A stretch of 11,179 bases of DNA, taken from positions 1-11,179 of the forward strand of contig CAMWRJ010000011.1 of assembly GCA_947176635.1 (NCBI GenBank), read 5' to 3'. Position numbers and translations under genes: made by a program. The notes under the pieces were generated by a model, which searched no databases, was not told where the DNA came from, and saw only the letters and a list, made by a program, of their open reading frames with translations. Each line of letters starts with the position of its first letter. The stretch's first letter is position 1. This document shows positions 1 to 8,252 of the stretch, one piece after another. The stretch comes from an uncultured Mycoplasmataceae bacterium (lineage in GTDB: Bacteria > Bacillota_I > Bacilli_A > Mycoplasmatales > Mycoplasmoidaceae).

Positions 1-1038
1 AACTATAATTTCTATATTTTTTAATTTTTTGCAATTTAAAAATACTTCTGGCTCAAAAAACCTTAATAAATAAGTTTTTATTTTAAAAATTTCTAAATTT
101 GGACAATTATTAAAAGAATTTTGAATATCTATCATTGGATTATTAAAATCTTTATTTATTAATTCAAACTTAACTAAATTTTTATTATTAGAAAAAGAAT
201 CTCAAGTGAAATGTATTGATTTATCGATAAAAAAATTAAATGATTGATCTTCTGATATTATAGGATTCGACAAAGAAATATTGACTATATTTATATTTGT
301 ATTATAAAATGATTTATCTTGAAAGTGGCAATATGCTGAATTCGATACATTATAACTATTTGGAAATTTATTGGTGTCTATTTCTTCATTATAATTAATG
401 AATAAATTAGGTGTTAATTTTGTACAATTTTCAAATGATGATGTTCCAAAATTTTTTATAGGTGTTTCTTCATTTTCAGAATTAAAACTTATTAAATTAA
501 TATTTTTAAAAACATTATTGTCATAAAAATAATTTGAAATTAAATATTTTGAAGGAGAGTTTGTTAACTCATATGTACTAGGAAATTTCAATGTTTCCAT
601 CTTAATTGTTCTATTTGCAATAGAATTAGCATATCATTCATTCATTTGTATATCTTTAACAAACAAAATATTATTAATTATTTTCTTATCATTAGTATTG
701 TTAGAAATTCTTAACTCTTTTACTTTTGATCAATGTATACTTCTATTTATGTTATACAATTCAATATTTGATAAATCTACATAATCTAATTCAAATTTTA
801 AGTTATCAAAAGCATTACTATAAATATATTTATAAGACTCTAAATCACTTGCATCTAAATGTTTTTTATTTTTTCATATAGTTTTGAAATTTTCTAAAAC
901 AATATCGGGTGTTAAACTATATGGGTCTTTATGTGGAAAAAGTGAACAAGAACAAGCTGCTGTAGTTGCTATTATTGGTATTGAAATTGTTGATGATAAA
1001 ACAGATAAAAAAACATTTTTATTAAATTTAAATTTCAT
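1..1038 (-). CDS. Surface lipoprotein with BspA-like leucine-rich repeats (C-terminus beyond window)
   Basis: Reading TGA as Trp gives an open frame of 346 codons from the ATG at 1038 to the left edge, with no TAA or TAG. The N-terminus is a lipoprotein signal peptide: basic MKFKFNK, a hydrophobic run, then a lipobox ATTAAC with the lipidated Cys at residue 29, so the mature protein should be anchored on the outer face of the membrane. From about residue 180 there are recurring units of the form F-x-N-C-x-x-L followed by short beta-like strings (SFENCTKL, SFNNCPNLEIFKI, VFLNCKKLKNIEI). This resembles BspA-type leucine-rich repeats, which in mycoplasmas occur in variable surface lipoproteins. 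At least five in-frame TGA codons are read as Trp. Ligand and role are unknown. The lipoprotein call is firm; the LRR assignment is by pattern and only moderately sure. Confidence 0.85.
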
Positions 1039-4100: not shown

Positions 4101-4108
4101 GAGAGGAG
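4101..4108 (+). promoter_or_regulatory. Ribosome-binding site of the helicase gene
   Basis: GAGAGGAG ends 4 nt before the ATG at 4113. It is a near-consensus Shine-Dalgarno, with either GAGG or GGAG able to pair. It supports 4113 as the true start. Confidence 0.75.
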
Positions 4109-4112
4109 ATTT

Positions 4113-7100
4113 ATGAAAAAAGCAATTAAACAAAAACTAATGAATTTAGTGTCAATTAATGCTTCTGATCCTATTATTCAAACTAATTTAGGTTCTAAGC
4201 AAATTGACATTTTAAAATTAATACCTAAAGAAGATTTGCAATTATTTTTAGATAATGAATTAACAGTTATTGAATTTAATTTATTCAAATATATTAAAGA
4301 TATTGAAAGTAAATTAAAATCATCACAAAACATAAATGAATTCATGACTATTTTAAATAATCATGGTTGAACTTTAACTGATTTTAGAAAACAAACATTA
4401 GAAAACAATTTTTCTGAACACAAACCAAAAACTATTTCTACAGTAGTTGATCAAATTAATGCATTTGTGAAAAAAATGTTAACACTAAATAAATTAGCTA
4501 AATCATATTATGATGATACTAATGTATCTCCATTATATATTGCTACTAAATTTTTAGAGGGTAGAACTAAATCATTTAATTATTTTAAATCGCCGCTTGT
4601 TTTATATAGAGTATCAGTCAGATTGGAAGGTACAAAATTAATTATTTCAAAATTACAAGACGATTTAATCTTAAATGAAAAATTATTAGTGTATCTAAAA
4701 AAAGAATACAATGATTTAAAAACAAATATTTCAGATTTATTATCTGTTAATAACTATAAAGGAATTATTGAAACAATTGAAGCTATTACTGATAATACAA
4801 CTATCATAAACAAAAATGGTGATGATTTAGTAACTTACAAAGTTCAAGATTGAAACAATCCTCAAATTGATACAAATGCTTTCCAAATTGAAAATAGTGT
4901 TGTATTAGGAATTTATGAACCAGATGGTGGTTTATTAAAAGAAGATTTAAAATATATGGTTGATAATGAAATTGATCCTTTTGAAAATAAAGATGATAAA
5001 GATAAACCAAATGAATACTATATTGACAAAATAATCAAAGAACAACCTATTTTAGAATTATCTAAACCATTAAATATTTATCAAAAATATGCAATCGCGT
5101 CATCATTAAATCAAAATACATTAATCTATGGTCCGCCAGGTACTGGTAAATCTGAAATTATTGCTAATTTAATTTTTAATATCTTATTAAAAGGTAAATC
5201 AACATTATTAGTTTCAGAAAAAAAAGTAGCTTTAGAAGTTGTAACTGAAAGAATTAATTCATTAGCTAAATTTGCAATTTTTATTTATGATTTAAAAAAT
5301 AAAGATGCTTTTTATGAAAAAATTGATGAATTAAATCAATTACTTGGTCCACAATGATATAGAGAAAAATCAAAAGGTTCTAAATTTGCAAAATTAGATC
5401 CTATTAAATTTAGTCAAGAAGAATCAATGTTTATTAAAAACTATCATGATTGATATCAAGAATTAACAGAAATTTTAAAACAACATTGAAATGTTGAAGA
5501 TTTTCAAGATGGCATTTATAAATATGATTATGCTGATTATGAAAGAATCAAAAATGAATTAGGACCTCAAATCACAAAAGAATGATTAAACGTAATTGAT
5601 GATGATACTAAAAAAACACTTTATCAAGAAGTACAAGATGTTGTTAAAATGTATAACTTCATCAAAATAGAAGATTTATTTGAATCTTATTTAAATTACA
5701 CAAAATTCTTAAAAAAATTCGGATTAAGAGATAAATTTACACAAACAGAACTATATAGTTATTTAGATAAAACTATTAAAAAAATTAATTCAAATGTGGA
5801 TATTGTAGAAAACTATTTATCTAATCAAAAGAAAATTACTAATTACATCAATGCTTATAAAGAATTTTTAAGTAAATATGATAAAGGTGATGAAACACTA
5901 GAGGAATTATTTTTCTCTAAATCAATAAAAGAAAAGAGAGCATTTATTGAAAAAGCTTCAAGTTTTATGGAATTTTATGATAATGTAATTGCTAAAGATT
6001 TCTCATTAAATAATAAAACTCCAAAAGAATTACATAAAATTGCTGAACTATTCCAAAAAATGTATGATAAATATGGTGTGATTTTAAACAAATCAAACTT
6101 ATATGAATTCTTAATTGAACATAAAGAAAAATTAATTGAATTTGTTGGTGTATATAAATCATTATCATCTGAAGATAGAAAAGCTTATTTTGCAGAATTT
6201 ATTGATAGTGGTAGTTTATTACCAACTCACAACTTACAAGAACATTGTTCTTTAAACTTAAAACAAATTGCACAATTAAATAAAGATGCTGATTTAACAA
6301 TTAGTTTAATGAATTTCTTTATTGATAATCAAGTTTATTTATCTAAAAATAGATTAAATGAAATTATTAAACAAACAGATTTTATTGGTATTGATTTAAA
6401 CTTCTTAAAAGATTTAATGAATATCAAAGATGCATATTCTAATGAAATTCAAGATATTTATAAAGAATGATCATGATTATCTAATCCATACATTAAAACT
6501 TTATATTTAGATGACATTGTTTTATTTGACTTAACTAAAGTTGAAAAAACAATGAAAAAAATTAGTACATTTGTAACAACTGAACAATTTAAACAATTAA
6601 AAATTATTTTATTCTGAGAAAAAATTATCAAATTAAATCCAATATTCTCTGAAACTAAAAATAGATTTTTACAAGATATTGTTGTTCAATTAAGAAAAGA
6701 ATCATATCGTTCTGCTGAAATTGTTGAAGAAATCACTTTCAAAAAATATATTCAAAATTTAAGAGTTTATTTAGCTAAATTATCACAAGAAGAAAAAGAT
6801 GAAATTGCAACTGTATTTAAATTAGCAAGTGCAAAATCAAATTTGCCATCTCCTGTTAAATTTATTAAACATTTCTATTCAGCATTAAAAAAATTATTCC
6901 CTATTTGAGTGGGTAGACCTGATAATGTTGCGACTGTAATTCCTCTAAATCAAGCTGAATTTGATTATGGTATTTTTGATGAAGCTTCACAATTATCTAT
7001 TGAACGTGCTTATCCATTAGTTTATAGATGTGACAAAAAAATTGTAGCTGGTGATGATAAACAATTAAAACCAACATCATTCTTTGTTTCAAAAATCGAT

Positions 7101-8213
7101 AACACAGATTATGATATAGATGATTTTGACTCTGCTGAATCATTATTAGAAAGAGCTAAAACAGCTTGATGAAATGAATTCCACTTAAAAAATCACTATC
7201 GTTCTTGATCTAAATCATTAATGGAATTCTCTAATAAATACATTTATAATAACAATCTAGAAATCGCTACAAAAAGTGACTATTTACAATCTGCAATTGA
7301 TGTAATTAATGTTAATGGTTTATGAAATTCTGAAAATTTAGATGAAGCTAAAAAAGTTGTAGAATTACTAAAAGAAAACTGAAATAAATATAAAAAAATA
7401 TTAATTGTTACATTTAACTCTAAACAATCAGTATTAATTGAAAACTTATTATCAGAACAACATTCAAAATTAGAAACAGGATTAAAAGAAAAACTAGAAA
7501 CAACAGACATTACAATTACTAACTTAGAAAATGTTCAAGGTAATGAAGGTGATTTAGTTATTTTATCAGTTGCTTATGGTAAAAACAGTGAAGGTTATGT
7601 AAGAAATAACTTTGGTCCATTAATTGCACATGGTGGTATGAATAGATTAAATGTTGCTATCACTAGAGCAAAACAAAAAATGATTATTGTAAAATCTTTA
7701 TATGGTAGTGATATTAAAGTCTCTAACCAAGATAATGAAAATGCTGTAATCTTTAAAAAATTCATTGAATACGCTGATGATGTTGCACAACAAATTTCAA
7801 TTGATGAAGAATTAACAAATTTAGAACAATCAGCTATTGTTGAATTTAATAGTGAATTAATTAAAGAAATTTATGGTCAATTAATGATGAAATTATCATC
7901 AAAATATCAAATATTATTAGATTTAAATATTGGTACTAAAAATATTGATATAGCTGTTATTAATCGTGAAAATAAAGAAATTGTTAAAGCAATTATTATT
8001 GAACCATGAAAAGAAAATAGAAGTTATCAATTAATGATTGAAGATATTGATCGTCAATATTTCTTAGAAGAACGTGGTTATTCTACATTCAGAATTAAAG
8101 AATATGAATGATATACTGATAAACATAAATTAGTACAAAAAATCATTCAATCATTAGATAAAAAACATACTCCAAAAGTTGATTATGTTTTGTGACAACA
8201 AAATAATAAATAA
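4113..8213 (+). CDS. Large SF1 (UPF1-like) helicase with DUF4011-like N-terminus and REase-like C-terminus
   Basis: 1366 aa in one frame once at least 18 TGA codons are read as Trp; there is no TAA or TAG before 8211. The N-terminal third resembles DUF4011 (PLYIATKFLE at 140-149, then SPLVLYRVSV from 160). The SF1 helicase core follows: Walker A GPPGTGKS (340-347), a Lys/Glu-rich, probably helical stretch of about 580 residues (370-950), motif II DEAS (956-959), motif III GDDKQLKPT (980-988), HYRS (1028-1031), motif V around ENVQGNEGD (1139-1147) and motif VI NVAITRAK (1180-1187). The last 90 residues look like an REase-fold domain (IDIAV with D1279, IIIEP with E1297, EDIDRQYFLEERGY from 1310). 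All NTPase motifs are intact, so ATP-driven translocation on nucleic acid is very likely. A role in defence or repair is inference from domain order. It is monocistronic, with its own promoter region and terminator. Confidence 0.93.
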
Positions 8214-8223
8214 TTAAATTTAA

Positions 8224-8252
8224 AACTATCTAGATGGCCTAGATGGTTTTTT
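8224..8252 (+). terminator. Rho-independent terminator of the helicase gene
   Basis: A 10-bp stem (AACTATCTAG at 8224-8233 with CTAGATGGTT at 8239-8248, one T-G wobble) has a 5-nt loop and runs into TTTTTT (8247-8252), starting 10 nt past the helicase stop. On the minus strand the same hairpin is followed by TTTT, so it may also stop transcripts coming from the remnant gene at 8264. Confidence 0.85.

What the first reader, a model, noticed from the sequence alone, without database searches (positions are those of the whole stretch)
4113..8213. Single-gene DUF4011-helicase-nuclease-like protein, similar in layout to Hhe anti-phage proteins
The order seen is a DUF4011-like N-terminus, an SF1 helicase with intact motifs, and an REase/Vsr-like C-terminal tail. 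This is the architecture described for the single-gene defence system Hhe (DUF4011-helicase-Vsr). Here it sits alone between housekeeping genes in a reduced genome, in the position often occupied by tilS upstream of hpt. A 4.1-kb gene kept intact in a small genome suggests a maintained role. The defence role is inference; it could equally be a mycoplasma repair helicase.
Basis: partly seen in the sequence, partly recalled or inferred. Interest (0 to 1): 0.7.

Follow-up and report, generated by a model that had tools for sequence, protein, structure and literature searches.

The report
Core-like Ureaplasma helicase from defence family
This large gene encodes a helicase related to known anti-phage proteins, but in its own branch of ureaplasmas it looks vertically inherited and almost as conserved as a core gene, with an altered nuclease end, so it may serve routine genome upkeep instead of defence.

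Summary
ORF 4113-8213 (+, 1366 aa, code 4) has DUF4011, an SF1 helicase core with intact motifs and a C-terminal MTES_1575 (REase) domain, alone between hpt and tig. It belongs to the superfamily of ProA and Hhe but falls far below both curated cut-offs (331 of 1500 and 224 of 2000 bits) and lacks ProA's DUF3320 tail.

Comparison changes the reading. It forms one orthologous group, in 5 of 10 Ureaplasma and 6 of 6 genomes of a neighbouring genus. Its tree fits the rpoB tree, with a loss in one Ureaplasma clade. Among four Ureaplasma species it is 63-75% identical (RpoB 70-76%); a family paralogue in the same four genomes is 34-47%. Canonical REase residues are altered: E replaced in 18 of 18, H in 17 of 18. 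No defence family was found in the flanking proteins tested.

Best reading: a vertically kept, core-like SF1B translocase for genome maintenance, from a superfamily with defence members. Anti-phage defence remains the main rival. Function is inferred.

The parts
4113..8213 (+). CDS of the DUF4011-helicase-REase-like protein, 1366 aa, code 4
4103..4108 (+). Shine-Dalgarno-like GAGGAG
   Evidence: read by eye
4338..4697 (+). DUF4011 match (residues 76-195)
5130..5156 (+). Helicase motif I, GPPGTGKSE (residues 340-348)
5430..6782 (+). All-helical insert between the helicase halves, about residues 440-890
   Evidence: local pLDDT mostly 70-90 in a model of pTM 0.36
6978..6992 (+). Helicase motif II, DEASQ (residues 956-960)
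7050..7073 (+). Helicase motif III, GDDKQLKP (residues 980-987)
7191..7205 (+). Helicase motif IV, NHYRS (residues 1027-1031)
7533..7568 (+). Helicase motif V region, VQGNEGDLVILS (residues 1141-1152)
7644..7673 (+). Helicase motif VI, RLNVAITRAK (residues 1178-1187)
7899..8156 (+). MTES_1575 (REase) domain with altered canonical residues (residues 1263-1348; D1279, I1295, E1297, N1302)
8222..8250 (+). Terminator-like hairpin

Best explanation
A vertically inherited SF1B (UPF1/Sen1-like) ATP-driven nucleic-acid translocase of the DUF4011 superfamily, kept in the Ureaplasma lineage. I think it works as a genome-maintenance helicase: the helicase core moves along or unwinds DNA at broken, stalled or transcribed structures, DUF4011 and the helical insert hold substrate or a partner, and the REase-type tail mainly binds nucleic acid because its catalytic site has diverged. 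Shown: architecture, intact helicase motifs, altered REase residues, purifying selection, slow rate, and descent that fits the species tree. Inferred: substrate, direction of movement, loss of cleavage, and the maintenance role.
For: The orthologue group is sharply set off: 11 of 95 family genomes score 1774-2391 bits, the next 521; 6 of 6 in genus g9, 5 of 10 in Ureaplasma. It is one clade (18 of 18 rows, SH-aLRT 100; 10 of 10 rows), and with the rpoB tree of 37 genomes one loss in the clade G002, G005-G008 explains Ureaplasma. Among G001, G003, G004 and G009 (6 pairs) X is 63-75% identical, RpoB 70-76%, a paralogue in the same genomes 34-47%. From the window to these four: X 50-53%, RpoB 57-58%, FtsH 47-50%, hpt 50-56%, tig 30-33%. 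dN/dS is 0.04-0.20 in 6 pairs of close orthologues (some pairs share rows). In L036 and L037 the last acidic residue is Cys, yet dN/dS of that pair is 0.07. Flanking proteins: no PADLOC family in 10 of 10 tested; Pfam gave housekeeping or membrane families or nothing in 10.
Against: Absent from 5 of 10 Ureaplasma genomes, so not indispensable in the genus. The best named matches include anti-phage or candidate defence families. The wider family is multi-copy and fast, with tandem paralogues. Neighbourhood not conserved: six kinds in ten genomes. D1279 is kept in 17 of 18 and an acidic residue at 1297 in 16 of 18 orthologues, and a Bacteroides protein above the ProA cut-off (L092) also lacks the canonical E and H, so loss of cleavage is not proven. 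Part of the tail evolves faster than the rest in one of six pairs (L062/L053, dN 0.184 against 0.137). The window's place beside the other four Ureaplasma has SH-aLRT 84 and is unresolved. The relative Mbov_0647 of M. bovis is named in the horizontal-transfer section of PMC3365025 (one passage). No experiment.
Confidence: 0.5

Rival explanations
1. A ProA/Hhe-like single-gene anti-phage protein, long fixed in the lineage. The helicase senses or travels along invading DNA and the REase-type tail, with a non-canonical acidic pair, cuts it or triggers another response.
For: Same domain order as ProA and Hhe, and best matches to ProA and PDC-S37; relatives on 395 of 72,556 plasmid records and one phage-labelled record of 50,697; a split relative close to a restriction-type gene on a Spiroplasma plasmid; clade loss and changing neighbourhoods; acidic pair mostly kept, and ProA reference L092 has a similar non-canonical site.
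Against: RpoB-like conservation while a paralogue in the same genomes diverges much faster; descent fits the species tree; no PADLOC family in 10 tested flanking proteins; far below both curated cut-offs; canonical E missing in 18 of 18; no relative found among 461 pattern matches in viral contigs.
Confidence: 0.38
2. A relic: an old defence gene drifting without a role, found whole by chance in these genomes.
For: Altered REase residues; absent from 5 of 10 Ureaplasma.
Against: Open frames of 1366-1407 aa in the 10 genomes read, intact helicase motifs and dN/dS 0.04-0.20.
Confidence: 0.02
3. An RNA-directed helicase (UPF1/Sen1-like), acting on transcripts or R-loops, rather than a DNA-repair or defence enzyme.
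For: The nearest solved structures by sequence and fold are UPF1, IGHMBP2, SETX and Sen1, largely RNA helicases.
Against: The REase-type tail points to DNA, and eukaryotic helicases dominate the solved set, so this resemblance says little about substrate.
Confidence: 0.1

Closest known systems
ProA anti-phage protein (NCBIfam NF058533)
   Same: DUF4011, SF1 AAA_11/AAA_12 helicase and MTES_1575 in the same order; best NCBIfam match, 331 bits
   Different: Cut-off 1500 not reached; the two references above the cut-off are 1963 and 1985 aa with a DUF3320 tail, which is absent here
Hhe anti-phage protein (NCBIfam NF042953; PADLOC PDLC02194)
   Same: Same domain order; 224 bits, 164 bits in PADLOC
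   Different: Cut-off 2000 not reached; the Vibrio reference has 1915 aa and the canonical D-E-D-H residues
PADLOC candidate PDC-S37 (PDLC05009)
   Same: 296 bits; best stretch covers residues 333-1353 and profile positions 308-1343 of 1550
   Different: Only a candidate family; neither its function nor a threshold was available here
MG_140-like helicase of Mycoplasma genitalium (1113-aa ORF, L173:2805-6146)
   Same: DUF4011, SF1 helicase, weak MTES_1575 with altered residues, in a very small genome
Core DUF4011 gene of Pseudomonas aeruginosa (PA14_RS11765)
   Same: A DUF4011 gene reported in every P. aeruginosa isolate searched (PMC10250203; passages, abstract): precedent for a core DUF4011 gene
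   Different: Its sequence was not compared here; the passages give no function and it flanks a defence hotspot

Membership tests
DUF4011-SF1 helicase-MTES_1575 superfamily | DUF4011 N-terminus | tested here: met
   31.0 bits, cut-off 22.2
DUF4011-SF1 helicase-MTES_1575 superfamily | SF1 helicase core with intact motifs | tested here: met
DUF4011-SF1 helicase-MTES_1575 superfamily | C-terminal MTES_1575 domain by sequence | tested here: met
   E 1.8e-9, 37.9 bits, 0.3 bits under the cut-off; orthologue L031 above it (40.5 bits)
DUF4011-SF1 helicase-MTES_1575 superfamily | REase fold of the tail by structure | tested here: inconclusive
Hhe anti-phage protein | Curated cut-off of 2000 bits (NF042953) | tested here: not met
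   223.6 bits; positive control L088 2193.8 bits
Hhe anti-phage protein | Protection against phage | not testable with these tools
   needs an experiment
ProA anti-phage protein | Curated cut-off of 1500 bits (NF058533) | tested here: not met
   330.6 bits; controls L089 2223.8 and L092 2196.8 bits
ProA anti-phage protein | DUF3320 tail | tested here: not met
   no match up to E 1; present in L089 and L092
MTES_1575 nuclease | Canonical residues D, E and D of ExD, H | tested here: not met
   D1279 kept, I1295, E1297, N1302; all four in 6 of 61 readable proteins, among them Hhe L088 and ProA L089 but not ProA L092, so the canon itself is not strict
PADLOC PDC-S37 | Profile match over most of the length | tested here: inconclusive
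   296 bits; no threshold given
Core (housekeeping) gene of the lineage | Vertical, slow, present throughout | tested here: inconclusive
   slow, and descent fits rpoB; 6 of 6 in g9 but 5 of 10 in Ureaplasma

The most novel reading that the evidence does not exclude
A DUF4011 helicase-nuclease of the anti-phage type was domesticated in the Ureaplasma lineage into a slow-evolving genome-maintenance helicase: its REase-type tail lost its canonical active site and became a conserved binding module, while paralogues in the same genomes went on diverging at defence-like speed.
Probability: 0.35. Interest if true: 0.65.

Novelty: new variant of a known kind. Interest (0 to 1): 0.45.

Why it matters
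Proteins with this domain order are being named as anti-phage systems. Here a branch of that superfamily looks core-like in a reduced genome, beside fast-evolving paralogues. If true, it warns against defence calls from architecture alone, gives a test case of recruitment from immunity to housekeeping, and offers a candidate role for a large uncharacterised helicase family of mycoplasmas, including the M. genitalium relative.

Tried and rejected
Rejected: 'X took the tilS place beside hpt'. Upstream of hpt stand other genes in 11 of 11 relatives examined, and tilS lies directly before hprK in 8 of 9 Ureaplasma relatives. Rejected: 'part of a defence island'. Of 10 flanking proteins of orthologues, Pfam gave an ion channel, an LMP repeat (just under its cut-off), Lit, ATP synthase epsilon, HPr kinase, aldehyde dehydrogenase, SUFU and nothing for three; PADLOC gave nothing for 10 of 10, eight flanks of orthologues plus the window's hpt and tig. 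More distant flanking genes were clustered but not annotated. I first read the tail as a dead nuclease; one search made me weaken this, because an acidic pair is kept in most orthologues and the ProA reference L092 also lacks E and H. Rejected as less likely: recent horizontal arrival; the tree of X fits rpoB, though the window's exact place is weakly supported or unresolved.

Rows dropped: one search found rpoB in 38 of 39 genomes, of which the tree holds 37 (G040 left out). The tree holds 55 rows (pieces L050, L058, L060, L090 left out). The tree holds 45 (further MAG copies and long or fast rows left out). In one search, 4 of 65 rows are unreadable at the active site.

Led nowhere: structure of residues 1-1200 (pTM 0.36; sensible fold matches for the helicase part only); viral contigs (461 pattern matches, no relative); Rfam (no match); tRNAs (none); promoters (chance level). 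Papers: nothing for ProA or for DUF4011 plus Vsr; Hhe occurs in 3 papers with DefenseFinder and helicase (listing only) and not in PMC9122126, so its source paper was not found; the library holds 3 papers with DUF4011 or DUF3320, of which I saw passages of two. PMC12852374 and PMC3365025: one passage each. In one search no record titled U. parvum or U. urealyticum appeared; its two patterns may miss relatives, so nothing is concluded for these species.

Full report

Gene unit. A GAGGAG precedes the ATG and a terminator-like hairpin follows the stop; promoter-like sites are at chance level. hpt diverges from it and tig converges on it. hpt-ftsH is adjacent in 11 of 11 relatives examined; X is absent from those 11 hpt loci and from 9 tig loci.

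Organism. Relatives labelled 'same genus' have contigs whose lengths equal named records of U. canigenitalium, U. diversum and Ureaplasma sp. ES3154-GEN, so the window is from a Ureaplasma (inference). Its assembly is 64.6% complete.

Family. NCBIfam: ProA 330.6 bits (cut-off 1500), Hhe 223.6 (cut-off 2000), with two weaker families. PADLOC: PDC-S37 296 bits, Hhe 164, then MkoA 80 and weaker ones. Reference proteins behaved as controls: L088 passes Hhe; L089 and L092 pass ProA; the mollicute L085 passes neither. Both ProA references carry DUF3320; the window protein does not. It is a member of the superfamily, not of ProA or Hhe as curated.

Distribution. With an alignment of 8 orthologues, 64 of 95 genomes of the family have some relative, and scores fall into two classes: 11 genomes at 1774-2391 bits, and the others with a match at 521 bits or less. 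The 11 are 5 of 10 in the window's genus (G000, G001, G003, G004, G009) and 6 of 6 in g9. A named scan gave 17 loci, 16 of them long matches and one of 32 residues. On an rpoB tree of 37 genomes, G000 is sister to the five that lack the gene (G002, G005-G008), these six are sister to the other four that have it, and a g9+g8 pair lies outside. The tree of X separates Ureaplasma from g9 likewise (window with the four others at SH-aLRT 84), though a second tree leaves the window's place unresolved. Simplest reading: vertical inheritance with a loss in one Ureaplasma clade and one in g8 (0 of 2 genomes). The five genomes without it are 74-93% complete, so five chance misses are unlikely.

Rate. 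Among G001, G003, G004 and G009 (6 pairs) X is 63-75% identical, RpoB 70-76%, and a second family member present in the same four genomes 34-47%; that second member forms one clade in the trees (SH-aLRT 99). From the window to these four: X 50-53%, RpoB 57-58%, FtsH 47-50%, hpt 50-56%, tig 30-33%. dN/dS (Nei-Gojobori) in six close pairs, some sharing rows, is 0.042, 0.045, 0.051, 0.070, 0.088 and 0.197; dN in the last 125 codons is below the rest in five pairs and above it in one (0.184 against 0.137). This looks like a core gene whose tail still has a role.

REase residues. Against Enterobacter ProA (ID...ECDGATYHS), 18 of 20 orthologue rows are readable. They have D1279 in 17 and E in one; I or L for the canonical E in 18; at the next acidic position E in 15, D in 1, C in 2; at the H position N in 17, H in 1. 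All four canonical residues occur in 6 of 61 readable proteins: Hhe L088, ProA L089, L085, L082, L175 and the window genome's own second member L049. Against a strong 'dead nuclease' claim: ProA reference L092 has D-I-D-K. For it: L036 and L037 have Cys at the second acid, and the pair L036/L054 (L054 is the same contig as L037, by length) has dN/dS 0.070.

Context. Among ten genomes with X the neighbourhoods fall into six kinds: hpt/tig (window); a 578-aa protein and an ion channel (G009, G001, G004); ATP synthase epsilon and HPr kinase (G003); G017; G034 with G026; G107 with G109, where HPr kinase is again a few genes away. Ten flanking proteins had no restriction, toxin or transposase family in Pfam, and ten, largely the same set with the window's hpt and tig, had no PADLOC match. 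The wider family does look mobile: 395 of 72,556 plasmid records match, none covering 80%, one of 50,697 phage records (unannotated, 28.8% identity), a split copy near an NgoFVII-family gene in Spiroplasma citri, and tandem paralogues in G002 and G008.

Interpretation. Domain order alone would file this as a defence helicase. The rate, the descent and the altered REase residues fit better a protein kept for the cell's own nucleic-acid metabolism, which I put at 0.5; defence stays at 0.38. A precedent for a core DUF4011 gene exists in P. aeruginosa (PMC10250203: passages, abstract). For M. bovis Mbov_0647, with the same domains, one passage lists it in a secretome table (PMC8249566) and another names it in the horizontal-transfer section (PMC3365025), which speaks for mobility of the wider family.

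Limits. The large protein database was unavailable; trees are quick searches with SH-aLRT only; RpoB, FtsH, hpt and tig are the yardsticks; no strain-level data; no experiment.

Noticed in passing
G000:C79 (L049:2-1852) and G000:C70 (L050:1948-3180): Pieces near contig ends of further DUF4011-helicase family protein(s) in the window's genome, perhaps one gene; the C-terminal piece L049 has the canonical D-E-D-H REase residues.
   Followed up: partly
L160 (G000:C35):137-1639: A 188-aa gene and hprK lie 12 bases apart; tilS stands directly before hprK in 8 of 9 Ureaplasma relatives, and a tilS query finds nothing in this 64.6%-complete assembly (only sub-cut-off TilS_N matches).
   Followed up: partly
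L034:8608-13849: In Ureaplasma sp. ES3154-GEN the orthologue sits directly before hprK, where tilS stands in the other species; its tilS is elsewhere.
   Followed up: partly
L047:5500-13296 and L048:2064-9848: Tandem pairs of strongly diverged family members in G002 and G008.
   Followed up: no
L090:5480-11458: Spiroplasma citri plasmid pSciBLHMB-7: a DUF4011 helicase relative split into two ORFs, close to an NgoFVII-family restriction endonuclease.
   Followed up: no
window 1-1038: ORF on the minus strand that runs off the window's end, lipoprotein-like by eye (signal followed by Cys), with only a weak leucine-rich repeat match.
   Followed up: no
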